The translations under genes were made by a program, and so were the position numbers. The notes under the pieces are model-generated. The model did no database searches. It was not told the origin of the DNA and saw only the letters and a program-made list of their open reading frames with translations. Shown here in pieces: positions 31,604 to 50,973 of a DNA stretch of 64,000 nt (position 1 is the stretch's first letter; every line of letters begins with the position of its first letter). Source of the DNA: Zobellia uliginosa (GTDB lineage: Bacteria > Bacteroidota > Bacteroidia > Flavobacteriales > Flavobacteriaceae); NCBI RefSeq assembly GCF_018860745.1, contig NZ_JAHKPY010000003.1:62001-126000 (forward strand). The letters are read 5' to 3'.

Positions 31604-31610
31604 AAAAAGA

Positions 31611-31643: not shown

Positions 31644-31678
31644 CCAATTATCAATAAATAATAATGTAAAACAAAAGT

Positions 31679-31798: not shown

Positions 31799-31810
31799 AA
31801 CTAGACTATT

Positions 31811-33418
31811 ATGACAAATTATAATTCAGCTATTGACGTTGTACGTAACTTAAAGGCTAGACACGGAAATACATGGGGTGCCATAAGTCCGGAGAATACG
31901 GCTAGAATGGCTCTTCAAAACAAGTTTAAAACAGGATTGGATATTGCTAAATACACGGCATCTATCATGCGTAAAGACATGGCGGACTATGATGCTGATC
32001 CAATGAACTACACGCGATCTTTAGGTTGCTGGCATGGTTTTGTTGCACAACAAAAGATGATAGCGGTTAAGAAACACCACGGCACTACAGATAAATCATA
32101 CTTGTACCTATCTGGGTGGATGGTAGCCGCTCTACGTTCCGAATTTGGACCATTACCCGATCAGTCTATGCACGAAAAAACATCGGTTCCCAAATTGATT
32201 GAAGAGATTTATCAGTTTTTAAAGCAGGCGGATGCGGTAGAATTGAATGATCTGTACCACCGTCTCGATGCGGGTGAAGATGTACAAGATGAAATCGATA
32301 ATTTTCAAACGCACATTGTACCTATTATAGCAGATATCGATGCCGGTTTCGGAAATGAGGAAGCCACTTATTTATTGGCAAAGAAAATGATTGAAGCCGG
32401 TGCATGCGCACTGCAGATTGAAAATCAGGTGTCAGACGCTAAACAATGTGGTCACCAAGATGGTAAGGTTACCGTGCCTCACGAAGATTTTATAGCAAAA
32501 TTAAATGCGCTGCGTTATGCGTTTTTAGAGTTGGGTGTAGAAGAAGGCGTTATCGTAGCTCGTACCGATTCTGAAGGTGCCGGTTTGACTCAAAAACTAC
32601 CCGTTTCTAAAGAACAGGGAGATTTGGCGTCAAAATATATCGATTTTATAGAGGCGGAAGAAATCGCTATGGATGAGGTAAAAGAAAACGATGTATTGAT
32701 TAAGAGAAACGGTAAATTGGTTCGTCCTGTTCGTATGCCTAACGGACTATATAAATTTAAGCCTAACTCTAATATAGATAGGGTTGTTCTGGATTGTATT
32801 ACTAGTTTGCAGAACGGTGCGGATCTGCTTTGGATAGAAACTCCGACACCGCATGTGGGTCAAATTGCAAATATGGTAAACAGGGTAAAAGAGCAAATAC
32901 CAAATGCCAAGTTGGTGTATAATAACTCACCATCTTTTAACTGGACACTTAATTTTAGGCAGCAGGCATATGACTTTATGAAGGAAGCTGGGGATAATAT
33001 ATTAGGATATGATAGGGCTGATCTTATGGATATTAAATATGATGAAACGGAACTATCGCAACGTGCAGACGAAATGATTAGAACGTTTCAAGAAGATGCT
33101 GCATTAAATGCAGGTGTTTTTCATCACTTAATTACTTTACCAACATATCACACAACTGCATTACATATGAACGATCTTGTGGAAGGGTATTTTGGTGAGA
33201 TGGGCATGTTGGCCTACGTAGATAATGTTCAGCGCCAAGAAATACGAAAAGGAGTGTCTTGTGTTAAGCACCAACGTATGGCAGGTTCTGATTTGGGAGA
33301 TGATCACAAAACCTATTTTGCAGGCGACAGAGCTTTAAAGGCAGGTGGTGAAAAGAATACTAGCAATCAGTTTTCTACCAATAAAAAGGAGAAAAAGGAA
33401 GTTGTATTATCTAGATAA
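31811..33418 (+). CDS. aceA: Isocitrate lyase
   Basis: It splits isocitrate to glyoxylate and succinate. The catalytic segment is DAKQCGHQDGKV with Cys213 and His215; the usual KKCGH has Gln in the second position here. PIIADIDAGFGNEEA binds Mg2+, and NNSPSFNW is the conserved substrate loop. At 535 residues it belongs to the long form (as in Pseudomonas, about 530) rather than the 430-residue E. coli form, with the extra part around residues 225-330. It ends at a strong hairpin at 33431. Confidence 0.96.
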   Translation: MTNYNSAIDVVRNLKARHGNTWGAISPENTARMALQNKFKTGLDIAKYTASIMRKDMADYDADPMNYTRSLGCWHGFVAQQKMIAVKKHHGTTDKSYLYLSGWMVAALRSEFGPLPDQSMHEKTSVPKLIEEIYQFLKQADAVELNDLYHRLDAGEDVQDEIDNFQTHIVPIIADIDAGFGNEEATYLLAKKMIEAGACALQIENQVSDAKQCGHQDGKVTVPHEDFIAKLNALRYAFLELGVEEGVIVARTDSEGAGLTQKLPVSKEQGDLASKYIDFIEAEEIAMDEVKENDVLIKRNGKLVRPVRMPNGLYKFKPNSNIDRVVLDCITSLQNGADLLWIETPTPHVGQIANMVNRVKEQIPNAKLVYNNSPSFNWTLNFRQQAYDFMKEAGDNILGYDRADLMDIKYDETELSQRADEMIRTFQEDAALNAGVFHHLITLPTYHTTALHMNDLVEGYFGEMGMLAYVDNVQRQEIRKGVSCVKHQRMAGSDLGDDHKTYFAGDRALKAGGEKNTSNQFSTNKKEKKEVVLSR

Positions 33419-33430
33419 ATGTAAAAATGT

Positions 33431-33480
33431 TTAATGGTAAAGGTGATGTATCTGTACTTCACCTTTACCATTAATTTTAT
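33431..33480 (+). terminator. Intrinsic terminator after aceA
   Basis: A perfect 16-bp stem (33431-33446 with 33459-33474), a 12-base loop, and a T-rich tail. It separates aceB-aceA from the RraA-like gene. Confidence 0.85.
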
Positions 33481-33523
33481 TTAGATGGAATACAACATTA
33501 AATCTTAACTAAAATTTAGTCTT

Positions 33524-34000
33524 ATGTGCGTTACCGCAGACCTTTGGGATGAAAACCCTAACCTTTTTGAATGTGTAAAACCCATTTTTCAATCCTTTGG
33601 GAATAAAAAAATGTTTTTCGGAAAGATTTCTACCTTAAAGCTTTTCGAGGATAACTCTCTTGTACGCAGAAAATTGGAAACTAACGGAGACGGAAATGTA
33701 CTGGTTGTAGATGGTGGAGGTTCTTTAAATTGCGCCTTGGTCGGTGATCGACTTGCAGCATTGGCTATCAAGAATAATTGGTCTGGAATTATTGTTAACG
33801 GTTGCATTCGCGATAGTGCTCTGATAAATACTATGGAAGTTGGAATAAGGGCTTTAAACTCCAGCCCCGTTAAAAGTGTTAAACGTAATGAAGGTGAACA
33901 AGATATTCCCGTAAAGTTTGGCGAGGTTACTTTCGTTCCTAATCATTATGTTTATGTGGATTTAGATGGAATACTATTGAGTAAAGAAGCTATTTCTTAA
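33524..34000 (+). CDS. RraA-like aldolase (HMG aldolase/oxaloacetate decarboxylase fold)
   Basis: This 158-residue protein is almost the same length as E. coli RraA (161). It has the family core VVDGGGSLNCALVGDRLAAL, where Gly74-Asp75 begin the active loop, then GIIVNGCIRDS with Arg96-Asp97, the pair that in aldolase members binds pyruvate and metal. Family proteins either bind RNase E or act as 4-hydroxy-4-methyl-2-oxoglutarate aldolase and oxaloacetate decarboxylase; the intact Arg-Asp pair fits an enzyme. It lies between isocitrate lyase and a glyoxylate-type aminotransferase (33 bases downstream), so a role in C2/C3 keto-acid handling is a reasonable inference. Confidence 0.8.
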   Translation: MCVTADLWDENPNLFECVKPIFQSFGNKKMFFGKISTLKLFEDNSLVRRKLETNGDGNVLVVDGGGSLNCALVGDRLAALAIKNNWSGIIVNGCIRDSALINTMEVGIRALNSSPVKSVKRNEGEQDIPVKFGEVTFVPNHYVYVDLDGILLSKEAIS

Positions 34001-34032
34001 TTTTTTAATCCTTTATCAACGCTACTAGAGAT

Positions 34033-35223
34033 ATGAAAAACAGGAAATTATTAATGATACCGGGCCCTATAGAGTTTGAGCCGGAAGTTTTACGTGCTAT
34101 GGGTATGGCTACTACTAGTCATGTAGCTCCAAATTTTATAGAGACATTTGGAAAGAGTCTTGAAATGATGAGAGATATATGGATGGCACCAAACGGACAA
34201 CCATTTATTGTAGCGGGAACTGGCACTTTAGCGATGGATATGGCGGCAGCTAATCTTATCGAAAGAGGAGATAATGCCCTTGTGATTTCTACGGGGTATT
34301 TTGGGAAAAGGTTTAAAGATATTTTGGATAGATATGGAGCCAATACAACAATCTTAGAATCTAATGTTGGTGAAATTGTTCCAATTGATGCTATTGAAAA
34401 AGAATTGAGCTCTAAACAATTTAAAGTATTAACGATTACCCATGTAGATACCTCTACGGGAGTTTTGGTAGACCCGAAGCCTATAGCGGAATTAGCAAGG
34501 AAATACAATGTTTTATGTATTCTAGACGGAGTCTGTTCCGTTGCGGGTGAAGAAATCAAACAAGAAGAATGGGGTATTGATGTGGTCTTGACCGGTTCTC
34601 AAAAGGCAATAGGCGTACCTCCTGGGCTAGCACTTTTGGTTGCCTCCCAAAAAGCAATGGAGGTTTGGGAAAATCGAAGGACACCGGTGTCTAGCTACTA
34701 TTCTGACTGGAACAATTGGCTGCCAATTATGAGAGCCTATGAAGAAAGGCGCTCGTCTTATTTTGGGACACCTGCCGTAAATTTAATCGTAGCCTTGGAA
34801 ACCAGTTTAAAAATAATAGGTGCAGAAAAGATTGCAAACAGGGTAGAAAAAAACAAAAAATTAGCTGAAGCTTTTAGAGCGGGAATAAAAGCCCTTAACC
34901 TAGAAATTTTACCTAAAACTGAAGAGATAGCGGCCAACACTTTATCGGCAATATATTATCCAAAAGATATTGATGGGGCTGAATTACGTTCAAGAATCGC
35001 TCATTATAATATTATTGTAGCAGGCGGATTGCTTTCGGAGATAAAAGCATCCTATTTTAGAATTGGGCATATGGGTTCTGTATCTTCCAATGATTTAATA
35101 TCCGTTTTGAGTGCTCTAGAAATGGCGTTGTTGGAGTTAGGCCATTCTTTTGAATCTGGAAAAGGCCTGCAAGCTTTTCAAGATAACTTATTGGCGTCTA
35201 ACGAGAAACTCTCTACAGTTTAG
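34033..35223 (+). CDS. Class V aminotransferase, alanine-glyoxylate/serine-glyoxylate type
   Basis: The 396-residue PLP enzyme of fold type I transfers an amino group, probably to glyoxylate to give glycine. The PLP-binding Lys191 lies in TGSQKAIGVPPGLA, and LDGVCSVAGEEI supplies the PLP Asp. The start MIPGPIEFEPEVL is that of the AGT/SGT branch. The C-terminal substrate Arg lies in KASYFRIGHMG. It follows the RraA-like gene by 32 bases and both lie downstream of aceA. Using shunt-derived glyoxylate for glycine synthesis is the inferred role; phosphonate transaminases (PhnW-like) are related and cannot be fully excluded. Confidence 0.87.
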   Translation: MKNRKLLMIPGPIEFEPEVLRAMGMATTSHVAPNFIETFGKSLEMMRDIWMAPNGQPFIVAGTGTLAMDMAAANLIERGDNALVISTGYFGKRFKDILDRYGANTTILESNVGEIVPIDAIEKELSSKQFKVLTITHVDTSTGVLVDPKPIAELARKYNVLCILDGVCSVAGEEIKQEEWGIDVVLTGSQKAIGVPPGLALLVASQKAMEVWENRRTPVSSYYSDWNNWLPIMRAYEERRSSYFGTPAVNLIVALETSLKIIGAEKIANRVEKNKKLAEAFRAGIKALNLEILPKTEEIAANTLSAIYYPKDIDGAELRSRIAHYNIIVAGGLLSEIKASYFRIGHMGSVSSNDLISVLSALEMALLELGHSFESGKGLQAFQDNLLASNEKLSTV

Positions 35224-38977: not shown

Positions 38978-40246
38978 ATGAGAAATATAGCAACAATAGT
39001 ACTGTTACTTTTTGTGATAGGGGCGTGCAAATCGCAATCTCAAAAGGATGCAGTTTTAGAATCTAGTGAAGACCAAGGAGGTTTCCCTTTTGTTTTACCA
39101 AAGGAAAAACCAAATAGAAAGATGAGTGCAGCTATGGAACGTATCTATACGGACTATGAAGCGCCGCAACCACAGCACAATGAACTTTTTAGTCAGTTTA
39201 AATATACAGAGCTGAAGGGATTTGATTATAATGGAGGAGATGGGACAATCACTAGAAGAGATCCTTCAAAAACCATTATCCATAACGGAAAGTATTACGT
39301 ATGGTACACTTATAGAAATACTTCTACACCACCAAGGGGAGCAGATAAAAGTAGTGACACGGTGCCGTCATCAGATTGGGACCTTTCTGAAATTTGGTAT
39401 GCTACTTCTGTGGATGGGTTTACATGGGAAGAGCAAGGAGTTGCCATAAAAAGGCCAGAAAAACCTACGGTAGGCTGGCGGTCAGTAACTACAACAGATA
39501 TTTTAGAGTGGGAGGGAAAATATTATCTCTATTACCAAGGATTTATGGAGGCAAGTGGAAAAAGAGGAGACGACTGTCCTGTAGCGGTTTCTTATGCAGA
39601 ATCTCCAGAAGGTCCTTGGACGCCATATAATAAAATTGTTATTCCAAATGGTGGAGAAGGGGAGTGGGACCAATATTCCATACATGATCCGTACCCGTTA
39701 GTTCACGACGGTAAAGTTTATATTTATTATAAATCTGATTTTGGAGAAAAGCCCGATAAGGTACGTATGCAAGGGCTAGCTATTGCAGATAATCCGTTGG
39801 GCCCATTTACAAAACATCCGCTGAACCCCGTAATTACTTCTGGGCATGAAACTTCTTTATTCCCATTTCGGAAAGGAGTTGCAGCCTTGGTCTATAAAGA
39901 CGGACCAGAGCATAATACAATTCAATATGCAGAAGACTGGGTTAATTTTGAGATTGCAAGCATAACAGAATTGATGCCGTATGCGGCAGCACCTCATGTG
40001 CCGGATGCTTTTACGAATACTAAAGACGGACGCGGAATTACCTGGGGACTTGCCCATTTTATCAGTTTGGGAGGGAAGGACCAATTTCACTCCAAGCTAG
40101 TACGTTTTGACTGTGATTTAAGCTTGGACCTTGACGACCCTGAAATGAAAAATCACCGTGTAAATCATAAACCTGATGTTTATTATAGCCAAGGGCTGAG
40201 CAAGAAACAAATGCAGCGTTTAGAATCTGGAAGCTTAGAAAAGTAG
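38978..40246 (+). CDS. Glycoside hydrolase family 117, lipoprotein (3,6-anhydro-L-galactosidase type)
   Basis: The 422-residue lipoprotein (lipid Cys17, IGACKSQ) is closely of the GH117 pattern known from Zobellia AhgA, which releases 3,6-anhydro-L-galactose from neoagaro-oligosaccharides. The N-terminal SAAMER fits the SxAxxR dimer motif. The five-bladed propeller follows from GFDYNGGDGTITRRDPSK. Candidate catalytic residues are Asp95 (RRDPSK), Asp237 (HDPYP), and His290-Glu291 (GHETS), in the same order as in characterised members. Some GH117 clades are inactive on neoagarobiose, so the exact substrate (agar, porphyran or a sulfated variant) is open. It ends at a terminator at 40270. Confidence 0.92.
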   Translation: MRNIATIVLLLFVIGACKSQSQKDAVLESSEDQGGFPFVLPKEKPNRKMSAAMERIYTDYEAPQPQHNELFSQFKYTELKGFDYNGGDGTITRRDPSKTIIHNGKYYVWYTYRNTSTPPRGADKSSDTVPSSDWDLSEIWYATSVDGFTWEEQGVAIKRPEKPTVGWRSVTTTDILEWEGKYYLYYQGFMEASGKRGDDCPVAVSYAESPEGPWTPYNKIVIPNGGEGEWDQYSIHDPYPLVHDGKVYIYYKSDFGEKPDKVRMQGLAIADNPLGPFTKHPLNPVITSGHETSLFPFRKGVAALVYKDGPEHNTIQYAEDWVNFEIASITELMPYAAAPHVPDAFTNTKDGRGITWGLAHFISLGGKDQFHSKLVRFDCDLSLDLDDPEMKNHRVNHKPDVYYSQGLSKKQMQRLESGSLEK

Positions 40247-40805
40247 TTTTTTTAGAATATTGATTTGATAAAGAGCATCTTACGGTGCTCTTTTTTTATA
40301 GTATAAAATGAAAAAAGTTTTACTTGCAAGAGTAGATTTTTAATGGAGTTTAAATGGAATTAAATGACGAAAAATTCTGTAATTACCGTTCGTCTATAGG
40401 TAATTTCTTTTCAAGTGTAGATAAACGGTATTCACCGAAAAATGAAATTATTTACAAGCAAGATGAAGTAATTTTGGGATAAGGAAAAATAGTATTTGGA
40501 TTAAAAAGTTAGAATTTAATTCCTCAAAATGCGGACGATTTATGTCTGATAGGCGGTTTGAAAAGGCTATTTACTGTTCTCTTGATGATAGAATGATATT
40601 AAATGTTCCCCCCTTTTATGAAAGACAGTAAGTAACCAAGATGAAAAAATCGTTCGCATTTTTTATTTCCCTCTTCAACGGTAACGTGTTAAGTTATTAA
40701 GTTATGCACCACGGTTGCTAACAATTGTTTTGATCTACATTTTTTTAAGTCCATCCTTAATGATAAATTTGTTATTGGTTTAAATCAATAATCACAGCAA
40801 ATAAA
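40247..40805. other. 559-base intergenic region
   Basis: After the terminator at 40270-40297, no convincing gene was seen. A 42-codon ORF at 40354-40482 (MELNDEKFCNYRSSIG...) and several short open pieces downstream have a somewhat protein-like look, but they are broken by stops; the stretch may be decayed coding DNA. No repeat or terminal inverted repeat was found. Confidence 0.35.
40270..40297 (+). terminator. Intrinsic terminator after the GH117 gene
   Basis: AAAGAGCATC (40270-40279) pairs with GGTGCTCTTT (40284-40293), with one wobble and a TTAC loop; T residues continue to 40297. Confidence 0.85.
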
Positions 40806-41348
40806 ATGTCATTCTATAGTAGTTTAGCAGATTTTGGTTCTCGTTTTGTGGGTAGGCATAAGATATTTAAGCATGGTTTTAATCTTTCGCCCATGTACCG
40901 GCGTAGTACCGCTAAAATAAAAAGTGTTTCCACGGACTTGAAGAAAGTTACCGTAAAACTGCCCATTAGTTATAAAAATAAGAATTACGTAAATTCTATC
41001 TTTGGTGGAAGCCTCTTTTCTGCGGTAGATCCTATACCCATGGTTCAACTTATTAATATTCTTGGTGACGATTTTGTGGTATGGGATAAATCTGCTGAAA
41101 TCTCTTTCAAAAGACCTGCTAAAGAAGATGTTTATGCAGATTTTGAATACAGCTCGGAAGAAATTGAAATCATAAAATCAAGAGTACAACAGGAAGCTGA
41201 GATAGATATCGTTAAAACTACATTCTTAATGAATGCAGAAAGAAGTACTATTTTCTGTGAAGTAAAGAAAACCATCTACATAGCAGATAAGGAACATTAC
41301 AAACGTAAACGCGCGTTGGCAAAGGCTAAGAAAGAAGAGAAGATATAG
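40806..41348 (+). CDS. DUF4442 hotdog-fold protein
   Basis: This 180-residue cytosolic protein fits DUF4442, a hotdog-fold family related to acyl-CoA thioesterases. The segment NSIFGGSLFSAVDPIPMVQL matches the central helix region, and the end is a Lys-rich tail (KRKRALAKAKKEEK). The function of the family is not established; thioesterase activity is the usual guess. It is a single gene, with a long non-coding region before it, and converges on the GH28 gene. Confidence 0.75.
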   Translation: MSFYSSLADFGSRFVGRHKIFKHGFNLSPMYRRSTAKIKSVSTDLKKVTVKLPISYKNKNYVNSIFGGSLFSAVDPIPMVQLINILGDDFVVWDKSAEISFKRPAKEDVYADFEYSSEEIEIIKSRVQQEAEIDIVKTTFLMNAERSTIFCEVKKTIYIADKEHYKRKRALAKAKKEEKI

Positions 41349-41399
41349 TTTACTTTATAGATAGAAACTTTAAAATAATTAAGCAGTTTTTTAGCTCTA

Positions 41400-42926
41400 T
41401 TAATCTAATAGTTCAAAATGAACACTACCTTTCCAGCCTAAAGGTTCTTCAATTTGGTAATTAGTAATTGATTGCCCTTTAACAAGAGGTTTTGTGCCGT
41501 CAGCATTTTTCCAAGAAATGTCTCTAATCTGAAGATTTTTTACATCATCAACTATAATTGGGTATCTTGAATCCGTTTTATTTGTTCCAATAATCATATT
41601 ATCTATAGATATACCTTCTGCATGCCGTATAAAAAACGTATGACTAGGTAAGTTACCGTATGTAATTGCGTGAGGATATCCCTTTTCGTCTTCTTCAACA
41701 GTTGTTTTAAAATCACCTCTTTTAAGACCACCTTTTGAGAAAATTTGAATATTATTTAAAGATATGTTTTTAATTGGGAAACCTTCCAAGCCTGTAATAG
41801 AAGAACCCCATGTTCCGGCATTATGTGCTATTACGTTACTAATAGATATGTTTTTTACCTCTCCAATTTGGTTGACTACCGCGCCAGGTGTATGAGGTCT
41901 GGCTCTATTTCCAAGCCGGATGTAGATTGGGGATTCAGTACCATGTATAGTTATATTATTTACCGTAAAACCTTCTAGTATACCACCATCAACTATCATA
42001 AGTGAAATTCCTGAAACGCCTATACGTGGTGTATCCCAAATGGGCTTACCTTTTTCTTTTGAGGGCTTTATTACGCAATTACTTATGGAAACATTTTTAA
42101 AGCCGCCCGTGGTTTCGGTACCAGCTTTTATGGCATTACAAAAACTACTGACTACGCAATTTGTAATAGCAATATCTTCGCAAGCAGCTGCCCCTGTACT
42201 CTTTAAAACAATACCGTCATCATCAGAATCAATAATACTATTAGAGAGAACAACTCGGCGGCATCCGTCAATATCGATACCATCATTATTTCGACTTCCA
42301 TGACTGTATACGTAAATGTTAGAGATAAATAAGTCTTCACAATCAAGATAATGTTGATTCCAAATGGATGCATTGAGCATCCGTAGACCGTCTATTTTAA
42401 TATTCTTGCAGGAAATTAAAAGTATATTTCTAGGTCTACCGTCAACATCACCTGCATAAGGGTTGGGCATAGGAGTATGAAGCGCGCCTTGTCCGTCAAT
42501 AGTTCCGTTGCCCGTTATAGCTATATTTTCTTGGCTTTCGGCATAAATGAGTGCATTGAATCCGCCAAGTTGGTCTTTATGCGATCGATATTTTGGCATG
42601 GGTTGTAAAGGGAAATCGGTAACGTCAATACTTGAAAGTAAAACGGAGTTATGTTCAAAATGTAGTTCAACATTACTTTTTAAAATAATCGTGCCCGATT
42701 TGAAAATTCCAGAAGGTATAATCACTTTTCCTCCTCCATTTGCAACGCATGCATCAATTGCTTTTTGTATAAACTCAGTATTTAAAACTTTACCGTCACC
42801 AATCGCACCGTAGTCGGTAATATTGAAATTACCATTTTGGTGTTTACAATCTAATTTTATGGAATAAAGAATGTAACCAACAAAAACCAATAGTAAAACA
42901 AATAGACTAACCCGTATTATTTTCAT
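41400..42926 (-). CDS. Glycoside hydrolase family 28 (polygalacturonase-like)
   Basis: The 508-residue protein has an uncleaved-looking signal anchor (residues 5-22). The start of the beta-helix, FNITDYGAIGDG, is typical of GH28. Of the catalytic blocks, NNDGIDID (213-220, Asp215) and DSDDDGI (233-239, Asp236/Asp237) are present. The usual GHG histidine block is replaced by FCNAIKAGTET (262-272), a variant I associate with a divergent Bacteroidota branch. The enzyme probably hydrolyses a uronic-acid or related linkage, but plain pectin is not proven. It is divergent from the Nramp-like operon. Confidence 0.85.
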   Translation of the reverse strand: MKIIRVSLFVLLLVFVGYILYSIKLDCKHQNGNFNITDYGAIGDGKVLNTEFIQKAIDACVANGGGKVIIPSGIFKSGTIILKSNVELHFEHNSVLLSSIDVTDFPLQPMPKYRSHKDQLGGFNALIYAESQENIAITGNGTIDGQGALHTPMPNPYAGDVDGRPRNILLISCKNIKIDGLRMLNASIWNQHYLDCEDLFISNIYVYSHGSRNNDGIDIDGCRRVVLSNSIIDSDDDGIVLKSTGAAACEDIAITNCVVSSFCNAIKAGTETTGGFKNVSISNCVIKPSKEKGKPIWDTPRIGVSGISLMIVDGGILEGFTVNNITIHGTESPIYIRLGNRARPHTPGAVVNQIGEVKNISISNVIAHNAGTWGSSITGLEGFPIKNISLNNIQIFSKGGLKRGDFKTTVEEDEKGYPHAITYGNLPSHTFFIRHAEGISIDNMIIGTNKTDSRYPIIVDDVKNLQIRDISWKNADGTKPLVKGQSITNYQIEEPLGWKGSVHFELLD

Positions 42927-43134
42927 TCTTTTATATAATCATCAAAGTTTATATATATTTCAATATGCTTTTGTTTTATATTCCGAGCCAAAGGTTATTG
43001 AACGGAAAATTGCAATGTTTTTTTGTTAATTGCAAATAAATGGTTGTTCAGTTTTTAATCTTATTTTTAGGTGTCGGGATAAATTACCCAATCCCATAAA
43101 CTAATAATCGGAATTATTTAGTCAGTCTCATTTG
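42927..43134. other. Divergent promoter region, GH28/Nramp-like operon
   Basis: This AT-rich 208-base region lies between two divergent genes and must hold both promoters. No clear box pair was identified. Confidence 0.3.
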
Positions 43135-44343
43135 ATGAAGGATAAAAAAAAAAAGGGTATACTTGGTCTAATAGGTCCGGGCTTTATTACTGCAGCTTTA
43201 GTTTTGGGACCAGGTAGTTTAGCAATAGGTTCTAAAATTGGGGCTAACTATGAATTTAGGTTACTTTGGGTAGTGCCTATTTGTATTCTTTTTATGGCGG
43301 CTTTCACCATAGTTTCTACTCGAATAGGGTTAAGCTCAAAACAAACACTTATTGAACTGATACGTGAAAAATATGGTAATACAATTTGTATTGTTATTGG
43401 CGTAGGTCTTTTTATAGTAGCAGCTTCTTTTCAGGCAGGTAACTCAATAGGCGCTGGTATGGTGTTTGGTGAAATGTTTAATGTATCGCCTGTGCCATGG
43501 ATAATTGCATTTTCCGTTATTGCTATTATTTTACTGTTTTTTAAATCTTTTTTTAAGATTCTAGAGAAAATTATGATTGGCATGGTTGTTTTAATGCTGG
43601 TTTCATTTGTACTAACCCTAATAATTTCAAAGCCTAATATTTCACTTTTAATACAGCAATTTGATTTTGAATTACCAAGTGGCTCGGAATTTTTAGCTCT
43701 GGCTTTAGTGGCTTCCAGTTTTTCAATTGCAGGAGCATTCTATCAGTCGTATCTCGTCCAAGAAAAAGGATGGGATAAGAGTGATTCTAAATCACATGAA
43801 AGAGAAAGTTTATCCGGCGTATTTATTCTGGGAATAATAACGGCAACAGTTATGTTAGTGGCTGCTTCAGTACTTTATCCGCAGGGAATTCAGGTTAATT
43901 CTGCTGCCGAAATGGGTAAGGCATTAGAACCTGTATTCGGTAGTTATGCCACGGTAATATTTATGTTCGGTTTGTTTGCAGCTTCTTTTTCTTCCTTAAT
44001 CGGGAACGCAACTTTGGGCGGTGTTTTATTATCCGATGCTCTAAATATTGGCAGAAAGTTAGAATCCCAAAAAGTACGGTATGTGATAATGTCAGTCATA
44101 TTGATCGGTGCAGCTGTTGCTATAATTTTTGGGAATTTACCCATACAGCTTATAATTATGGCTCAAGGTTTTACTATCATAGTTGTTCCTGTAATAGGGT
44201 TTATGATTTTTATGATTGCGCGGGATAGAGCGGCTAAACACCTTTTTAAATTAAGTACAACATTGAATGTTATTATGATTTTAGGATTGGCAATGCTAGT
44301 GCTTTTAGCAGGGGCGAATACCTATAATATATTTATTAAATAA
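43135..44343 (+). CDS. Nramp-fold membrane transporter lacking the metal-site motifs
   Basis: The 402-residue protein has about 11 membrane segments and the general Nramp pattern: GLIGPGFITAALVLGPGSLAIGSKIGANY is clearly helix 1. However, the metal-binding DPGN is GPGS here (residues 25-28), and the helix-6 (A/M)PH site is replaced in SSFSIAGAFYQSYL (194-207). Canonical Mn2+/Fe2+ transport is therefore unlikely. The ATG at 43135 was preferred over the TTG at 43132. It heads an operon of sugar-acid type enzymes, so an organic substrate may be imported (inference). Confidence 0.82.
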   Translation: MKDKKKKGILGLIGPGFITAALVLGPGSLAIGSKIGANYEFRLLWVVPICILFMAAFTIVSTRIGLSSKQTLIELIREKYGNTICIVIGVGLFIVAASFQAGNSIGAGMVFGEMFNVSPVPWIIAFSVIAIILLFFKSFFKILEKIMIGMVVLMLVSFVLTLIISKPNISLLIQQFDFELPSGSEFLALALVASSFSIAGAFYQSYLVQEKGWDKSDSKSHERESLSGVFILGIITATVMLVAASVLYPQGIQVNSAAEMGKALEPVFGSYATVIFMFGLFAASFSSLIGNATLGGVLLSDALNIGRKLESQKVRYVIMSVILIGAAVAIIFGNLPIQLIIMAQGFTIIVVPVIGFMIFMIARDRAAKHLFKLSTTLNVIMILGLAMLVLLAGANTYNIFIK

Positions 44344-44354
44344 ACTAGAAATCT

Positions 44355-45374
44355 ATGATAGCTACAATAGCCGAATTAGAGGAACAACTCTCTAAACCTT
44401 CCAAACGATTAATAGAAGATATCAGTAAAATTGAAGGAGACATAATGATTTTAGGTTTGGGGGGAAAGATGGGGCCTACCTTGGCAAAGCTTGCTAAAAG
44501 AGCAATTGATGCTGCAGGAAGCACTAAAAAAGTAATTGGCGCTTCTCGCTTTTCAAATCAAAATCTATTTCAAGAATTGACAGATTTTGGTATTGAATGC
44601 ATCAAGGTAGATTTATTGGATGATGAAGCCTTGATGAAGCTCCCAAAGGTTAAAAACGTTATTTATATGGCGGGTAATAAATTTGGTACATCTGGTAATG
44701 AGCATTTTACATGGGCAATGAACGCTTACCTTCCTGGTAGAGTTTCGGAAAGATATAAGGAATCAAAAATAGTTGTTTTTTCTACCGGTAATATATATCC
44801 GTTTGTGCCTATTGACAGTGGAGGAGCTAAAGAAGAAGTGAAACCTTCACCAATTGGTGAATATGCCCAATCTTGTTTAGGTCGTGAACGTGTTTTTGAA
44901 CATTTTTCCGTTAAAAACGGAACAGAAATGCTATTGTATCGGTTAAATTATGCACTTGATCTTAGGTACGGGGTTTTGTTAGAAGTTGCAAAGGCGGTGA
45001 TTGAACAAAAAACAATAAATTTAAGTATGGGATTTGCCAATGTTATTTGGCAAGGCGATGCCAATGAGTATGCTATACGTTCCCTTTTACATTGTGAATC
45101 ACCGGCTAGAAAATTAAACGTGACTGGCCCGGAAACCATATCCATACAATGGTTGGCAGAAGAATTTGGTAAATTACTCAAGATAGAACCCATTTTTGAA
45201 AATAAGCCTGCAGAGACAGCATTGCTAAATAATTCAAACGGGGCTTATAGTTTATTTGGAAAACCTAGGACCTCACTGCAAGACATGATAAAGTGGACAG
45301 CTAATTGGGTCAAAATTGGAGGGGAACAACTAGGTAAACCTACGCATTTCCAAGAACGAAAAGGAGATTTTTAA
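44355..45374 (+). CDS. NAD(P)-binding epimerase/dehydratase-like protein with altered active site
   Basis: The 339-residue protein has an extended-SDR Rossmann start (MILGLGGKMGPTLAK, about 31-45) and the STGNIYPF active-site Ser/Thr segment. At the YxxxK position it reads EYAQSC (Tyr170, Cys174), so the usual Lys is missing and standard SDR catalysis is doubtful. It starts 11 bases after the transporter stop and is followed by the DHDPS-like gene after 22 bases, so it belongs to the same operon. The substrate is unknown. Confidence 0.75.
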   Translation: MIATIAELEEQLSKPSKRLIEDISKIEGDIMILGLGGKMGPTLAKLAKRAIDAAGSTKKVIGASRFSNQNLFQELTDFGIECIKVDLLDDEALMKLPKVKNVIYMAGNKFGTSGNEHFTWAMNAYLPGRVSERYKESKIVVFSTGNIYPFVPIDSGGAKEEVKPSPIGEYAQSCLGRERVFEHFSVKNGTEMLLYRLNYALDLRYGVLLEVAKAVIEQKTINLSMGFANVIWQGDANEYAIRSLLHCESPARKLNVTGPETISIQWLAEEFGKLLKIEPIFENKPAETALLNNSNGAYSLFGKPRTSLQDMIKWTANWVKIGGEQLGKPTHFQERKGDF

Positions 45375-45396
45375 ATCAAATTAGTACAAAGTTAAT

Positions 45397-46464
45397 ATGA
45401 ATACTTTAGACCCCGTATTAAAAAAATTGTTGCATCAAGGTACTGTAATTCCTGCTCATCCCTTGGCATTGACAGAAGGTCGTGAGCTAGACGAGAAACG
45501 TCAACGATTGTTAACAAGATATTATATGGCTTCAGGTGCAGGAGGTATTGCAATTGGGGTACATACAACACAGTTCCAAATACGAGACCCAAAAATCAAT
45601 CTATATAAAAAGGTATTACAACTGGCGATAGAGGAAATTGAAATAGCCAATTTAGACAGACCATTTATAAAAGTAGCCGGTGTTAGCGGGAATACGGAAC
45701 AAGCCGTAACCGAAGCTAAAATCTGTGCAGAATTAGGTTATGATATTGTTTTGGTAAGTACAAATGGCTTAGGAGATTGGTCAGAAGAGGCACTATTGGA
45801 ACGAGCAGCTAAAATTGCCCAAGTTATACCGGTATTTGGATTTTATCTGCAACCAGCTGTAGGAGGACGAGTTTTGAGTTATAATTTTTGGAAAGCTTTT
45901 GCTGAAATCAAGAATGTAGAAGCTATAAAAATGGCACCGTTTAATAGGTATCAAACTTTAGAAGTGGTACGTGCCGTTTGCGCTTCATCACGTTGTGATG
46001 AAATTGTATTATACACGGGTAATGATGACAATATAGTAGCTGACCTTTTAACGACTTATAATGTGACTATTGAAGGCAAAGTCATCAAAAAAGATATTGT
46101 AGGGGGATTACTGGGGCATTGGGCCGTTTGGACTAATAAAGCTGTTACGCTTTTGGAGGAAATTCATAAAGTAAAACAATCCGGCGGAACGATATCTAAA
46201 GAATTAATGTCATTGAATATTGCAGTAACGGACACTAATGCAGCATTTTTTGATGCGACCAATAATTTTGAAGGGTGTATAGCAGGTCTTCATGAAGTAT
46301 TGAGAAGACAAGGTCTTCTAAAAGGAATTTGGTGTTTAGATGAAGCAGAAAAATTATCTACAGGTCAGAATGAAGAGATAAGTAGAGTTTATAATGATTA
46401 TCCGCATTTAAATGATGATGATTTTGTTAGAGATAATATAGAAAATTGGTTGAAAGGCCTTTAA
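45397..46464 (+). CDS. Dihydrodipicolinate synthase-family aldolase/dehydratase
   Basis: The 355-residue class I lyase of the DapA fold has its Schiff-base Lys178 in AIKMAPFNR and Tyr150 in GFYLQPAVGG, and a C-terminal extension of about 60 residues beyond the usual 290-300. Family members condense pyruvate with an aldehyde, cleave 2-keto-3-deoxy sugar acids, or dehydrate keto-deoxy sugar acids. In this operon, beside Gfo/Idh and SDR-like genes, a catabolic role on a sugar acid is more likely than lysine synthesis. Confidence 0.8.
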   Translation: MNTLDPVLKKLLHQGTVIPAHPLALTEGRELDEKRQRLLTRYYMASGAGGIAIGVHTTQFQIRDPKINLYKKVLQLAIEEIEIANLDRPFIKVAGVSGNTEQAVTEAKICAELGYDIVLVSTNGLGDWSEEALLERAAKIAQVIPVFGFYLQPAVGGRVLSYNFWKAFAEIKNVEAIKMAPFNRYQTLEVVRAVCASSRCDEIVLYTGNDDNIVADLLTTYNVTIEGKVIKKDIVGGLLGHWAVWTNKAVTLLEEIHKVKQSGGTISKELMSLNIAVTDTNAAFFDATNNFEGCIAGLHEVLRRQGLLKGIWCLDEAEKLSTGQNEEISRVYNDYPHLNDDDFVRDNIENWLKGL

Positions 46465-46523
46465 GTAAGAAAGCAGTTTCAAACAATAATTTAATATTTT
46501 TAGAATAGTAAATAAGGAAGCAT

Positions 46524-47822
46524 ATGAAAACTAATCCACGGAGAAAATTTTTAAAACAAACTTCTAAAACAGTAGCAGCCGGTATGGTGTTTAGTCATCT
46601 TCCCGTTTTTTCAAATGTTAATGTCTTGGGGCAGCAAAAAATAAAATTGGGTTTAGTGGGTTGTGGAGGTCGTGGTACTGGGGCAATATTTCAAGCTTTA
46701 ACGGCGTCAAAATCTGTAGAATTAGTAGCAATGGGGGACGTTTTTCAACATGAGTTGGATAATAGTTTTGAAAGAGTTTCTATAGATTTTCCCGAACAAG
46801 TCAATGTACCGCGAGAACGTAAATTTTTGGGATTAGAAGCGTACAAAAATGTTATTGATGAGTGTGATGCGGTAATTTTGGCTACACCACCTGGTTTTAG
46901 ACCTGATCATTTTGAATATGCCATAGCATCTGGCAAACATGTTTTTCTAGAAAAACCATTAGCTGTTGATGGTCCTGGATATAGAAAAGTGATAGAAACC
47001 GGAAAATTGGCAACGGAGAAGAAGTTAAACGTTGTAGTTGGGTTACAATTCCGTTATGAAATTGCACTAAATAAATTGGTGGAAAAAATTCATGCAGGTG
47101 ATATTGGAGACGTTCTTTCTATGAATGTTTATTATAACGTTGGTATGGCTACCGTACATCCACGAAAACCAGGTCAAACAGAATTGGAATATCAAATTAG
47201 TAATTGGCATTATTTTAATTGGTTATGGGGCGGTCAACTTGCCGGTCAGGCCATTCACCAAATTGATGTAGTTAATTGGATTAAAAAAGATTACCCCATT
47301 AAAGCAAGTGGAATGGGAGGTAGGGCAATGCTTAAAGGGCCGGACCATGGAGAGATATTTGACCATCATTATGTAGAATATGAGTATGCCGATGGTACAA
47401 AACTACATGTACAGTGTAGACAAATGGATAATTGTGCCAATAGACTGGGCTTTAATATTCAGGGTTCTAAAGGTAAGGCAGATGAACGTTTTCAGATGGT
47501 TGATTTAGAAGGAAATTCGCTTTGGAGATATAGAGACAAAGATGATCCATCATCTTCACAGATTGAACAGGATGAATTTATAGGAGCAATTTTAGGAAAC
47601 AAACCCTATGTGAACAATACTAAGTACGGAGCAGAAAGTTCAATGACGACTATCATGGGTAGAATGGCAATTGAATCTGGTAAAATTATTGATTTGGAAA
47701 AGGCGAAAGGGTCTAATTTAAGTATAGTGCCTTCCGAATTATCTTGGGATATGAAAATGCCTAATGCACCATTAGAAGATGGTAATTATGCGATTCCAAA
47801 GCCGGGAATTCCTGTATTGTAA
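46524..47822 (+). CDS. Tat-exported Gfo/Idh/MocA family oxidoreductase
   Basis: The 432-residue protein begins with a Tat-like signal (PRRKFLKQTS, hydrophobic part to about residue 35). The nucleotide motif is LGLVGCGGRGTG, and the catalytic EKP block is VFLEKPLAVDG. Later GLQFRYE and HQIDVVNW fit the second domain, with the His in the position of the usual catalytic His. It is exported, unlike the three genes before it, so oxidation or glycoside cleavage may start in the periplasm before uptake. The lipoprotein gene follows after 16 bases. Confidence 0.85.
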   Translation: MKTNPRRKFLKQTSKTVAAGMVFSHLPVFSNVNVLGQQKIKLGLVGCGGRGTGAIFQALTASKSVELVAMGDVFQHELDNSFERVSIDFPEQVNVPRERKFLGLEAYKNVIDECDAVILATPPGFRPDHFEYAIASGKHVFLEKPLAVDGPGYRKVIETGKLATEKKLNVVVGLQFRYEIALNKLVEKIHAGDIGDVLSMNVYYNVGMATVHPRKPGQTELEYQISNWHYFNWLWGGQLAGQAIHQIDVVNWIKKDYPIKASGMGGRAMLKGPDHGEIFDHHYVEYEYADGTKLHVQCRQMDNCANRLGFNIQGSKGKADERFQMVDLEGNSLWRYRDKDDPSSSQIEQDEFIGAILGNKPYVNNTKYGAESSMTTIMGRMAIESGKIIDLEKAKGSNLSIVPSELSWDMKMPNAPLEDGNYAIPKPGIPVL

Positions 47823-47838
47823 ATGAATTAATCTGAGC

Positions 47839-49023
47839 ATGAAAAATTTAATTAATTGCGTTGTCTTTGTTTTATTGATTTCAGGTTGTTCTACGTCGGA
47901 GAAGATGCCTGTTGTTATTGTTTCTGAAACTGTGGGCTTAGACCGTCCTTTAGAATATGTAAACCCAACGATTAGTTTGGATAGTGAATTGCTGGAGAAT
48001 GAGATGTTAGTAGCTATTGACCCAGAAGATGGAACTGCTATACCGGTTGATGATACAGCATTTGTTAAAAATGAAAATCGGTTTGAATATTCTATAATTT
48101 TTCCGATTACGCTTACGGCAAATCAAACCAAAAAAATCAATATCAGTATTCAAGAAAAGAGTAAGATTGGATTACCTATTCAGCAAATGCTCTCCGAAGA
48201 TAATCTAGCTGTAGAGAACAAATATTACAAAGCTACTTTTAGCACGGAAGATGATAAACGCGGCGGACAAGTAAAGGGAATAGAGTTGAAAAACTTTAAA
48301 AATCAGCTGCTGAAAAGAAGCCATATTGCAATGCATTGGGCTCCCAATTTTTCTAAAAGTAATTCAGAGTTTTATTTTAATTTAGAAGATTTACGACCGG
48401 ATTCCAAAAATCACATAGAAGTAGAAAAGTACCGTGTAGTCAAGGAACGTTCAGGTAGTACGGATAGCGTGCCCGAGATTCTAATTGAAGGACGTTACGA
48501 GTTTTATGATAATCTGCCTTATTTTTTGTTTGAGTCTATTATTTCGGTTCAAAAAAAGGTGGAACTAAATCTCTTGCGTAATGATGAAATGACTATGGAT
48601 AGTCTTTTTACCCATCTTGCGTATGCTAAAAAAGATGGTACCATTAAACGGTTAAATTTATACTCCGATGAACTAGATTTTTTAGAAGAATGTCATATTA
48701 CTGATGATGCAGCTTGGTTGGCTTTTTATAATTTAGAAAAAGGTTATGGTTTTGGTTCAATACGTCTTCAGTACGATAATGCAAATACAAAAGGCGAGCC
48801 CTCACCAACGCACAATCCATACACCAAGATTACCAAATCTTCAAATAATGGTAGATATTGGAACAGAGTTTTATCCGATACTATTCAGACCTTTCCGGTT
48901 GGAAGCCGCTACTACGAGAAAAACGCGTATCTAATTTTTTCGGTAGATATAGAAAATCCTGACAAGGAAATTAAGAATTATGCGAAGCGCTTAAAGCATC
49001 CATTATCGATAAAACTAGATTAG
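47839..49023 (+). CDS. Lipoprotein of unknown function in the Nramp-like operon
   Basis: The 394-residue protein has a lipoprotein signal (lipid Cys17, ISGCSTS). I do not recognise the family. It looks all-beta: an N-terminal Ig-like segment of about 100 residues (VVIVSETVGLDRPLEYV...), then a larger beta-rich domain with aromatic and charged patches (MHWAPNFSKS, FYFNLEDLRPDS, GYGFGSIRL, NNGRYWNRVL). The NxRYWNR segment could be part of a sugar-binding or lyase site, but that is a guess. It ends the operon just before the convergent sulfatase gene. Confidence 0.65.
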   Translation: MKNLINCVVFVLLISGCSTSEKMPVVIVSETVGLDRPLEYVNPTISLDSELLENEMLVAIDPEDGTAIPVDDTAFVKNENRFEYSIIFPITLTANQTKKINISIQEKSKIGLPIQQMLSEDNLAVENKYYKATFSTEDDKRGGQVKGIELKNFKNQLLKRSHIAMHWAPNFSKSNSEFYFNLEDLRPDSKNHIEVEKYRVVKERSGSTDSVPEILIEGRYEFYDNLPYFLFESIISVQKKVELNLLRNDEMTMDSLFTHLAYAKKDGTIKRLNLYSDELDFLEECHITDDAAWLAFYNLEKGYGFGSIRLQYDNANTKGEPSPTHNPYTKITKSSNNGRYWNRVLSDTIQTFPVGSRYYEKNAYLIFSVDIENPDKEIKNYAKRLKHPLSIKLD

Positions 49024-49082: not shown

Positions 49083-50741
49083 TCATAGTCTTACATAATC
49101 TTTTGGGGCCATATTTCCTTTCCATCCTTTGTTGAATTGGAGCAATAATTCTTTTACAAGTTCAGGATTGTCTTTTGCAATATTTATAGTTTCTGCAGGG
49201 TCTTTAGCATGATCGTAAAGCTCAATAAAAACGGGTTCTGCATTTTTATCAGTATAGTCTTTCCAAACAATAAACCGATAATTTTTGGTACGCATAGAAT
49301 AACCCATTAGTCGGTTTTCAAATAAATCACGGTCCCATTTTTCGCCCTGTTGTTTCTTTATCCGCGTTTCAACTTCTTCTATTAAAGGTCCAAAAGAAGT
49401 TTCGCGCATTCCTTTTGACAATGGATTTGCAGCCCATTCCCTAAGCGCAGGAGTAGGAAATTGAGAAAAGACCGCTGTTTTCCATTCCTGTTCGGGATTA
49501 GATAGTAGGGGAGTAAAGCTCTGACCCTCCAAAGTAGCCGGTTTGGATATACCTGCCAATTCGCACAGTGTTGGATACATATCTACTAATTCAACCAAAG
49601 CATCGGTAGATTTACCTCTGTTTTCTTTTGCCATGTTTGGAGTCCAAATAATTAAAGGAACTCGGGTAGCTATTTCATAATTGGTAGCTTTTCCCCAAAT
49701 ACCCATATCGCCTAAATGCCACCCGTGGTCACTCCACAAAATAACAATGGTATTATCTCTTATTCCAGCATCATCAAGAGCATTCAACATTCTACCTATT
49801 TGGGCATCAACATAACTTACACAGGCCAGATAAGCATGTTTTAGTTTTATAGCTTGTTCAGGGCTTATATCTCCTTGTTTGGGAATATCCGCTCTGGCTC
49901 GTAATTCAAAGGATGCATGTAGTCCCATAGTGGCGCCATCTTTTGGAGCTTGTTCATGCTCAGCAAGTTTAATATCCGATTCACTGTACAGGTCCCAATA
50001 CTTTTTGGGTGCAATCCAATCTAGGTGTGGTTTTTTCATTCCCATACCCAAGAAAAAAGGTTTGTCAGGATTTTTCTGCAACATATCTTTCATGGTAGCG
50101 ATGGCCATGTCTGTATTGAAACCGTCTTCGTAAGCATTGTCCGGAAAATCGGCAAATTCATAGGCAGGACCTTTTCCAAGTCCATTTCTCAGCGCATTTT
50201 CTCCGTATTTAGCTATCATAGCAGCGCTATTTTCCTTTTGCATTTTAATATTTTCCGGTAATTTAAAACCGAATTTTACATCCTTTTTACCCAGCTGAAC
50301 AGGAGTTCTACTCCAAGAAAGTTCTGGGTCATTATATTTCCCATGGTAAATTTTACCCGTGTATACGGACTCATAGCCATTGGCTTTAAAGTGCTGTGGT
50401 AGTGTTGCTATATCGGGATTTTTATCTCTGAAATAGGTGAAGTTTTCAATTACTTGAATAGTTTCAGGTCTAGCGCCAGTCATTAGACTAGCTCTAGAAG
50501 GGCTACAAATGGCTTGTTGGCAATAAGCATTGTTAAAGCGTAAACCGTCATTCGCTAAAGCATCAATGTTTGGTGTAATCGCAATATCAGAACCGTACAC
50601 ACCTAACTCAGGCCTTAAATCGTCTATGGCTAAAAACAAGATATTGGGTTGCTTGGCTTTTTCTTCTACAACGGCTTTGGGTTCGTTCTTACAGCTGGCA
50701 AGTATTCCAAAAATGATAAGAGCGAAAATTCGAAGATTCAT
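49083..50741 (-). CDS. Sulfatase, iduronate-2-sulfatase-like (family S1), lipoprotein
   Basis: The 552-residue lipoprotein (lipid Cys17, LASCKNE) has its formylglycine Cys79 in CSPSRASLMTGARP. The start FLAIDDLRPELGVYG and the block SDHGWHLGDMGIWGK are those of iduronate-2-sulfatase-like enzymes. In marine bacteria this group acts on several sulfated uronic-acid or galactan oligomers, for example in ulvan or porphyran use, so human-type dermatan sulfate is not implied. It faces an HTCS gene (50974) and converges on the unknown lipoprotein. Confidence 0.9.
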   Translation of the reverse strand: MNLRIFALIIFGILASCKNEPKAVVEEKAKQPNILFLAIDDLRPELGVYGSDIAITPNIDALANDGLRFNNAYCQQAICSPSRASLMTGARPETIQVIENFTYFRDKNPDIATLPQHFKANGYESVYTGKIYHGKYNDPELSWSRTPVQLGKKDVKFGFKLPENIKMQKENSAAMIAKYGENALRNGLGKGPAYEFADFPDNAYEDGFNTDMAIATMKDMLQKNPDKPFFLGMGMKKPHLDWIAPKKYWDLYSESDIKLAEHEQAPKDGATMGLHASFELRARADIPKQGDISPEQAIKLKHAYLACVSYVDAQIGRMLNALDDAGIRDNTIVILWSDHGWHLGDMGIWGKATNYEIATRVPLIIWTPNMAKENRGKSTDALVELVDMYPTLCELAGISKPATLEGQSFTPLLSNPEQEWKTAVFSQFPTPALREWAANPLSKGMRETSFGPLIEEVETRIKKQQGEKWDRDLFENRLMGYSMRTKNYRFIVWKDYTDKNAEPVFIELYDHAKDPAETINIAKDNPELVKELLLQFNKGWKGNMAPKDYVRL

Positions 50742-50973
50742 ATTTTTATATTTGATGACTAATTGATGGTAAATACATCTAGTTTACAAAATAACCTTAA
50801 AATTCGGATTTTAAGTTTCTTGATTTTATCATGCGTCGGCACTATTTTAACTCTAACCATATTGTTGTGGTAGTGGATAGCTATATCATTTTTGGCTAGG
50901 CCCGTTAAAATTAAGTGTAAATAATACATCAAAAATAATTTATCGTTTAATAGAATTATTCTATATTCAAAAC
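50742..50973. other. Divergent region, sulfatase/HTCS
   Basis: These 232 bases separate two divergent genes and no gene was seen. They should contain the promoters of both; no unambiguous boxes were found. Confidence 0.3.

What the first reader, a model, noticed from the sequence alone, without database searches (positions are those of the whole stretch)
43135..49023. Operon of an Nramp-fold transporter without a metal site, an SDR without its Lys, a DHDPS-type lyase and a Tat-exported dehydrogenase
The helix-1 DPGN is GPGS, and the helix-6 (A/M)PH region is replaced. The epimerase-like protein has YAQSC in place of YxxxK. The DHDPS protein keeps its Schiff-base Lys178. Metal uptake and normal SDR chemistry are thus unlikely, and the company is that of sugar-acid catabolism. 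The set may be an undescribed uptake and degradation route in which an Nramp-fold protein carries an organic acid or sugar derivative.
Basis: partly seen in the sequence, partly recalled or inferred. Interest (0 to 1): 0.75.

Follow-up and report, generated by a model that had tools for sequence, protein, structure and literature searches.

The report
Nramp-fold transporter in a lyase cassette
A protein shaped like a metal-ion transporter, but without the metal-binding residues, is linked in two bacterial phyla to enzymes that appear to break down small organic acids, so this little-known branch of a metal-transporter family probably imports food molecules instead of metals.

Summary
The Nramp-family protein has GPGS for DPGN and S-I-A for M-P-H, the SDR-fold protein has Cys for the catalytic Lys, and the DHDPS-family protein keeps Lys178. 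These are family traits: no Lys in 81 of 81 SDRs, K178 in 75 of 75 DHDPS. The conserved core is three genes, Nramp-SDR-DHDPS, not five. DHDPS directly follows SDR in 74 of 80 loci and Nramp directly precedes it in 22, in Bacteroidota and Bacillota. Nine genomes of a 299-genome family sample have the SDR; all 9 carry the Nramp in the cluster. Starting from the Nramp, 10 members of its clade turned up in 793 genomes; 9 lie near a DHDPS-family gene. The block is a ~7.6 kb insertion absent from a congener. Best reading: an importer of an organic acid, perhaps a (N-acyl-amino) sugar acid, feeding a Schiff-base lyase; the substrate is not shown. A relative, PxpT, is published as a likely 5-oxoproline importer, so the idea has precedent, but nearly all Nramp-related groups are uncharacterised (PMC12873925).

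The parts
43135..44343 (+). Nramp-related transporter, 402 aa from ATG 43135; helix-1 GPGS (residues 25-28), helix-6 SFSIAG (195-200; S197-I198-A199 at the MPH positions)
44355..45374 (+). extended-SDR-fold protein, 339 aa, NAD-type glycine loop GLGGKMG, Y170 kept, catalytic Lys replaced by C174
45397..46464 (+). DHDPS/NAL-superfamily lyase or aldolase, 355 aa, K178, Y150 and a VHTT motif
46524..47822 (+). Gfo/Idh/MocA oxidoreductase with twin-arginine N-terminus (by eye); accessory, in 11 of 80 related loci
47839..49023 (+). putative lipoprotein (by eye) of unknown family; model is a mutarotase-like beta-supersandwich as in GH38 and PL26; in 6 of 80 related loci
41400..42926 (-). GH28 protein, divergent from the operon and part of the same inserted block
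41396..49004 (.). inserted block (GH28 plus the five genes): collinear in Zobellia barbeyronii (L021) on the other side of the DUF4442 gene, absent from congener G236

Best explanation
The cassette is a portable uptake-and-cleavage unit. The Nramp-related protein imports a small organic acid across the inner membrane. In the cytoplasm the SDR-fold protein, which has an NAD-type glycine loop but lacks the usual Lys, converts it by a step that does not need the classical Tyr-Lys pair (isomerisation, dehydration or decarboxylation). The DHDPS-type enzyme then forms a Schiff base with a 2-keto acid through Lys178 and cleaves it, probably to pyruvate plus an aldehyde. In Bacteroidota an exported Gfo/Idh dehydrogenase, a lipoprotein with a carbohydrate-type beta-sandwich and nearby glycosidases and sulfatases would supply the acid; in Bacillota a small Gfo-type protein often accompanies the pair. 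The most specific substrate guess is a sugar acid, possibly a 2-(acylamino)-2-deoxy sugar acid: an M20 amidohydrolase and, in some lineages, an L-serine-dehydratase-type enzyme join the cassette, and deacylation, dehydrative deamination and aldol cleavage would chain together. Shown: motifs, folds, conservation, linkage, insertion. Inferred: every reaction, the direction of transport, the substrate.
For: Metal-site residues (Asp, Asn, Met) are absent in the window clade. SDR-DHDPS pair in 74 of 80 loci (of the other 6, L020, L038 and L082 are cut by contig ends, L056, L057 and L068 lack it). Nramp directly upstream in 22 of 80, in two phyla at 49-54% identity between them. Nramp in the cluster of 9 of 9 SDR genomes in the family sample. 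With the Nramp as bait, 9 of 10 clade members lie near a DHDPS gene: 5 of window type, 4 of other DHDPS types; leaving out the two search centres, 7 of 8. Other importers occupy related loci: a CUT1-type ABC pair in 45 of 80, all labelled Bacillota, and an ArsB/CitM-type carrier in L087 and L096. M20 amidohydrolase in 16 of 80. Separate Bacillota operons have enolase-superfamily, DHDPS, Nramp, regulator, serine dehydratase and M20 genes together (L183, L202). Another Nramp clade adjoins pxp genes (L103, L137, L142, L144, L146), for which 5-oxoproline uptake is published (PMC13274462). Removing the helix-1 Asp abolished metal transport in BfraNramp (PMC12873925, passage).
Against: No transport, growth or enzyme data exist. 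YcsG, a relative without the canonical motif according to PMC12873925, was reported as a Mn2+ importer (PMC10448178). The window cluster has neither M20 nor serine dehydratase; the genome's M20 orthologue lies elsewhere. 57 of 64 Bacillota loci have no Nramp directly upstream. ABC pair and Nramp co-occur in 3 loci (L064, L088, L089), so replacement of one by the other is not clean, and in Bacteroidota it is confounded with lineage. One clade member (L136/L180) has no DHDPS in 18 kb; its genome carries the SDR-DHDPS pair on another contig without an Nramp in the 14 kb read. Three of eight GPGT-type rows show no pxp gene in the stretch read (L098, L104, L143).
Confidence: 0.6

Rival explanations
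1. The Nramp-related protein carries a neutral sugar or amino sugar rather than an acid; the same branch would then be a general carbohydrate carrier of marine Bacteroidota.
For: GTGS-clade homologues lie beside NagA-like (Amidohydro_1) and NagB-like (Glucosamine_iso) genes (L121, L125, L126 by Pfam for the genes tested; L171-L173 by tblastn), next to a phosphomannose-isomerase-type gene (L120, L176; weakly L174) and a GH10 gene (L175).
Against: That is another clade. The window clade goes with DHDPS-type lyases, whose known substrates are 2-keto acids (established knowledge), and the published organic substrate in the family is an acid.
Confidence: 0.18
2. The protein still imports a divalent metal (Mn2+ or Mg2+) needed by the pathway enzymes, and is co-transcribed for that reason.
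For: YcsG reported as a Mn2+ importer (PMC10448178); NRMTs with altered sites carry Mg2+ and Mn2+, and binding-site mutants of EcoDMT kept Mn2+ transport (PMC8806188, passages).
Against: No Asp, Asn or Met at the site in the window clade; NRMTs keep the helix-1 Asp (DxxG, PMC8806188). In related loci a sugar-type ABC pair or an ArsB/CitM carrier appears where the Nramp is absent. DHDPS enzymes use no metal (recalled).
Confidence: 0.13
3. The Nramp-related protein exports a product or toxic intermediate (for example an aldehyde acid) instead of importing the substrate.
For: Direction cannot be read from sequence; three of seven Bacillota Nramp loci also hold an ABC pair.
Against: Four of seven Bacillota Nramp loci show no ABC pair of this family in the 13-17 kb read, and a relative in a pxp operon is needed for growth on 5-oxoproline (PMC13274462).
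Confidence: 0.07

Closest known systems
PxpT / YcsG / PxpG, Nramp-family protein of pxp operons, tied to 5-oxoproline uptake (PMC13274462; passages read)
   Same: Nramp family, no canonical metal motif in the pxp-linked relatives seen here (GPGT/VVPYN, or GPGF in L128), beside a catabolic operon for an organic acid
   Different: Separate clade in the tree, partners are pxp genes rather than SDR and DHDPS; Mn2+ versus 5-oxoproline is disputed for YcsG (PMC10448178)
EleNRMT, Nramp-related magnesium transporter (PDB 7qia; PMC8806188, passages; the link of 7qia to this paper is recalled)
   Same: Closest solved structure by sequence (phmmer E 4.4e-27), altered binding site
   Different: Keeps the helix-1 Asp (DxxG-TxxA/T), which is Gly in the window protein
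Nramp-related G-motif groups (PMC12873925; passages of a preprint)
   Same: Lack of DPGN and MPH; the paper calls the groups other than those of EleNRMT and MntG entirely uncharacterised
   Different: To which of these groups the window clade belongs was not tested (their alignment was not available)
Oxidative chitin (Ong) pathway for GlcNAc1A (PMC9537276, PMC12017989; passages)
   Same: Same logic as the guess made here: importer of an N-acetylated sugar acid, deacylase, deaminase to a 2-keto-3-deoxy acid
   Different: OngIT is a sodium-solute symporter, OngB a D-aminoacylase-type amidohydrolase, OngC PLP-dependent, then KDG kinase; none of these belongs to the cassette
DHDPS / N-acetylneuraminate lyase / KDG aldolase superfamily
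   Same: Family by Pfam, Schiff-base Lys, Tyr and a Thr-Thr motif (T58 invariant, position 57 T or S)
   Different: GTTGE (recalled) is VHTTQ here; no close solved relative (best 3a5f, E 2e-5)

Membership tests
Nramp family (Pfam PF01566) | profile match over the curated cut-off | tested here: met
   221.1 bits against 29.8
canonical Nramp metal transporter | helix-1 DPGN | tested here: not met
   GPGS in alignment to solved MntH chains; GPGS invariant in the 20 sequences aligned; more distant clade members show GPSK (L135) and GPAS (L145)
canonical Nramp metal transporter | helix-6 MPH | tested here: not met
   S-I-A; positive control L102 shows DPGN and MPHN
canonical Nramp metal transporter | transport of Mn2+/Fe2+ | not testable with these tools
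   needs proteoliposomes or cells
NRMT (Nramp-related Mg2+ transporter) | DxxG-TxxA/T binding motif (PMC8806188) | tested here: not met
   no Asp at helix 1
PxpT / pxp-linked Nramp | linkage to pxpABC and the GPGT/VVPYN motifs seen in such relatives | tested here: not met
   other motif, separate clade and other neighbours
extended SDR | fold and NAD-binding glycine motif | tested here: met
extended SDR (classical chemistry) | YxxxK catalytic pair | tested here: not met
   Y170 in 81 of 81, K in 0 of 81 (C 67, S 7, T 4, V 2, A 1)
DHDPS superfamily | Schiff-base Lys, catalytic Tyr, Pfam match | tested here: met
   K178 and Y150 in 75 of 75; 25.1 bits against 22.1; Schiff-base formation itself not testable
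Gfo/Idh/MocA | N- and C-domain profile matches | tested here: met
   PF01408 and PF22725 over cut-offs; NCBIfam inositol and glycoside 3-dehydrogenase matches are far below their cut-offs
Ong (oxidised chitin) pathway | SSS importer, D-aminoacylase-type OngB and PLP OngC in one cluster | tested here: not met
   none among the five operon genes; the rest of the genome was not searched for them

The most novel reading that the evidence does not exclude
Nramp-related proteins with a Gly-rich helix-1 motif are not metal transporters but a broad class of importers for organic nutrients. One clade (GPGS) carries sugar-acid or N-acyl-amino-acid-like anions for DHDPS-type lyases, another (GTGS) carries unsaturated uronate and amino sugars in marine Bacteroidota, including the unidentified importer of flavobacterial alginate loci, and a third (GPGT) carries 5-oxoproline.
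Probability: 0.45. Interest if true: 0.82.

Novelty: new variant of a known kind. Interest (0 to 1): 0.64.

Why it matters
A 2026 preprint calls the Nramp-related groups other than those of EleNRMT and MntG entirely uncharacterised (PMC12873925, passage). Gene linkage now gives one such clade a testable job, the uptake of an organic acid for a Schiff-base lyase; the label divalent metal transporter, which NCBIfam's Nramp_1 model would give the window protein (90.7 bits against a cut-off of 50), would then be wrong. The SDR family with a missing Lys in every sequence aligned but otherwise strict conservation points to unstudied chemistry. A related clade sits in alginate loci of Flavobacteriaceae, where one paper says the importer of the alginate monomer in its strain has not been identified (PMC5334617, passage).

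Tried and rejected
Pfam and NCBIfam gave nothing for the SDR protein, and phmmer against the PDB only chance-level hits (E 0.25 or worse). Profile search of the fifth protein against the PDB gave nothing. The promoter and terminator scan found about what the shuffles give (28 against 24.8, sd 4.9; 4 against 4.0). I looked for a paper on the terfestatin enzyme TerB, the best structural match of the SDR; the two papers listed do not name TerB. I considered sialic-acid-like substrates (ROK-family gene by Pfam, RpiR-like regulator by eye, beside SDR-DHDPS in L042 and L044) and set them aside because only these two loci show them. GH20 genes (c15), NagA-like genes (c17, Amidohydro_1 by Pfam) and GH1-like genes (c19, by eye) stand near SDR-DHDPS in 12, 10 and 9 of 80 loci; heparinase II/III-type lyases in six (c36 in L045, L057, L068, L089 and c84 in L077, L080; L068, L077 and L080 Pfam-tested, the others placed by clustering). 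No single glycan fits all loci. No viral, phage, plasmid or E. coli collection was searched.
Full report

WHAT TRAVELS TOGETHER. A scan of the collection of 84,980 species genomes with the SDR protein gave 212 relatives, of which the best 80 were kept and read. DHDPS follows SDR directly in 74 of 80. Of the other six, L020, L038 and L082 are cut by a contig end and L056, L057 and L068 lack it. The Nramp gene lies directly upstream of SDR in 22 of 80: 14 of the 15 loci labelled Bacteroidota (the fifteenth, L037, starts inside the SDR gene), L029 (labelled Anaerotignum, but its protein groups with Arenibacter in the tree, so probably a misbinned contig), and 7 of the 64 other loci, all labelled Bacillota or a class of it. 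Window-type Gfo is in 11 of 80 and the fifth gene in 6 of 80. The core is thus Nramp-SDR-DHDPS, and within it SDR-DHDPS. In the seven Bacillota Nramp loci a GGDEF-like plus winged-helix regulator is present in 7 and a small Gfo-type protein in 6; over all loci these two are in 46 and 41 of 80. 45 of 80 loci, none of them Bacteroidota, carry a CUT1-type ABC permease pair instead of, or in three cases (L064, L088, L089) besides, the Nramp; L087 and L096 have an ArsB/CitM-type carrier. This looks like exchange of importers, but lineage confounds it.

LINKAGE WITHOUT THE SDR BAIT, AND IN A GENOME SAMPLE. In 299 genomes of the window's family, 10 matched the SDR protein. One (G142, 26% over 137 residues) is another SDR. 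The remaining 9 of 9 carry a GPGS-type Nramp in the same cluster. With the Nramp protein as bait in 395 Bacteroidota and 398 Bacillota genomes (these searches scored at most four candidates in a genome, so the counts are lower bounds), 15 matches at E 1e-40 or better were found. Five are GPGT-type, four of them with pxp genes (L137, L142, L144, L146) and one without in the stretch read (L143). Ten belong to the window's clade: eight with GPGS, L135 with GPSK and L145 with GPAS. Two of these ten are the search centres themselves (the window and G302). Five have SDR and window-type DHDPS beside them (window, L133, L134, L135, L138). Four have another DHDPS-family gene within about 1.5 kb (L139/L181, L140/L183, L141/L202, L145/L182). 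One, L136/L180, has none in 18 kb, though its genome holds the SDR-DHDPS pair on another contig. The ten genomes hold 43 DHDPS genes detected at 1e-5 in about 42.7 Mb, one per Mb, so about 1% would be expected within 5 kb by chance. That search missed the window-type DHDPS gene of four of the genomes (G000, G459, G463, G597), and the rows are related, so the figure is a rough guide. The clade of 32 rows (33 with L145) is supported at 98/94 (99/97) in a 60-row tree; the tree program warns that long rows (L128, L102, L145, L136 and others) are placed uncertainly.

PARTNERS THAT HINT AT CHEMISTRY. An M20 amidohydrolase gene is in 16 of 80 loci, in 15 as one cluster. M20 genes of a different subtype are in L177, L178 and L179. 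L-serine-dehydratase alpha and beta genes follow SDR-DHDPS in 5 of 80 (L036, L039, L043, L070, L091). Two Bacillota operons with a different GPGS Nramp and a different DHDPS carry the same kinds of partner: enolase superfamily, DHDPS, a dihydroorotate-dehydrogenase-like protein (my reading by eye; no Pfam match), Nramp, a regulator 28-29% identical to the one above, serine dehydratase and M20 (L183, L202). A 2-(acylamino)-2-deoxy sugar acid would explain these partners: deacylation, dehydrative deamination, cleavage of the 2-keto-3-deoxy acid. This is inference. The logic resembles the Ong pathway for oxidised chitin (PMC9537276, passages), but no Ong protein family is in the cassette. The window itself has neither M20 nor serine dehydratase. 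Its genome has an M20 75% identical to that of L062 at another place, within a locus that is collinear with the Ulvibacterium cluster L018: eight of the L018 genes have their match there, Nramp, SDR, DHDPS and Gfo have theirs in the window instead, and one MFS gene has none in the stretches compared. That the set moved as a unit is my inference; separate acquisition is not excluded.

MOBILITY. In congener G236 the flanking genes are contiguous: window 39068-41336 and 49112-50855 match stretches 91 bp apart. In Z. barbeyronii the block 41396-49004 is collinear at 87.2% identity, but lies before the DUF4442 gene and not after it. The two congeners sampled (G001, G236) lack the SDR gene and have only 33-34% GH28 relatives over most of the length. 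Portibacter lacus (L022), of another family, has the Nramp and the SDR at 91% protein identity, above the 80-82% of Ulvibacterium. Lateral transfer is the simplest reading.

WIDER NRAMP PICTURE. None of the four Nramp-family proteins over the cut-off in this genome has DPGN: GPGT, GPGS, GTGS, GTSH; a fifth match is below the cut-off. The GTGS protein sits in the genome's alginate-type locus, among a PL6-like lyase, an MFS carrier, a DehR-like SDR, KDG kinase and KDPG aldolase (names by eye). In 199 genomes of the family, 33 have a match to it at 1e-30 (40 matches), and 30 loci were read. Twenty-two of the 30 have a KDG kinase, PFK-like or KDPG aldolase gene or a PL6-, PL7- or PL17-type lyase gene beside it (the PL7- and PL17-type query genes are alginate lyases by Pfam, and the KDPG aldolase next to the homologue L114 is one by Pfam; the other names are by eye), one only a DehR-like SDR (L167), three NagA- and NagB-like genes, two a phosphomannose-isomerase-like gene, one a GH10 and one nothing recognised (L157). 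An Alteromonas paper draws such a gene in its alginolytic systems as a metal-ion transporter (PMC6431674, a figure legend; whether it is of this clade was not tested). A Flavobacterium paper says the alginate-monomer transporters of its strain are not identified (PMC5334617, passage).

WHAT IS KNOWN. Loss of DPGN and MPH in Nramp-related proteins is described, and these groups are called entirely uncharacterised apart from those of EleNRMT and MntG/YcsG (PMC12873925, passages of a preprint). C. glutamicum needs its YcsG relative PxpT to grow on 5-oxoproline (PMC13274462, passages), whereas YcsG of B. subtilis was reported as a Mn2+ importer (PMC10448178, passages). No paper on the Nramp-SDR-DHDPS cassette was among those listed by the searches; each lists only its best rows, and subscription journals are mostly not held.

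CONCLUSION.

Noticed in passing
L099 8991-10265 (own genome contig C1): A second Nramp-family protein without a metal motif (GTGS) lies inside an alginate-type locus; homologues recur beside alginate or KDG-pathway genes (22 of 30 loci read) and next to NagA/NagB-like or phosphomannose-isomerase-like genes in Flavobacteriaceae.
   Followed up: partly
L103, L137, L142, L144, L146; L098 8788-9981: GPGT/VVPYN-type Nramp proteins adjoin pxp (5-oxoprolinase) genes in five of eight rows; the own genome's strongest Nramp match (L098) is of this type but has no pxp gene in the 18 kb read.
   Followed up: partly
window 41396-49004: Insertion of about 7.6 kb at two different intergenic points one gene apart in two Zobellia-type genomes and absent in a third; no boundary repeats were worked out.
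   Followed up: partly
L186 (own genome C8:966000-982000): Locus collinear with the Ulvibacterium cluster but lacking Nramp, SDR, DHDPS, Gfo and an MFS gene; it keeps a formylglycine-enzyme-like gene, a YceI-like gene and the M20 gene (names by eye).
   Followed up: partly
window 30005-35223: Malate synthase, isocitrate lyase, an RraA-like aldolase and a class V aminotransferase stand in a row, a glyoxylate-centred set.
   Followed up: no
window 40513-40669: Intergenic stretch similar (72%) to a second stretch of the G236 region; possibly a shared regulatory sequence.
   Followed up: no
L029: Contig labelled Anaerotignum MAG carries a flavobacterial-type cassette grouping with Arenibacter; probably misbinned.
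   Followed up: no
L072 10212-11537 and relatives: A GGDEF-like plus winged-helix regulator family (46 of 80 loci) accompanies SDR-DHDPS and, at 28-29% identity, the distant GPGS-Nramp operons L183 and L202.
   Followed up: partly
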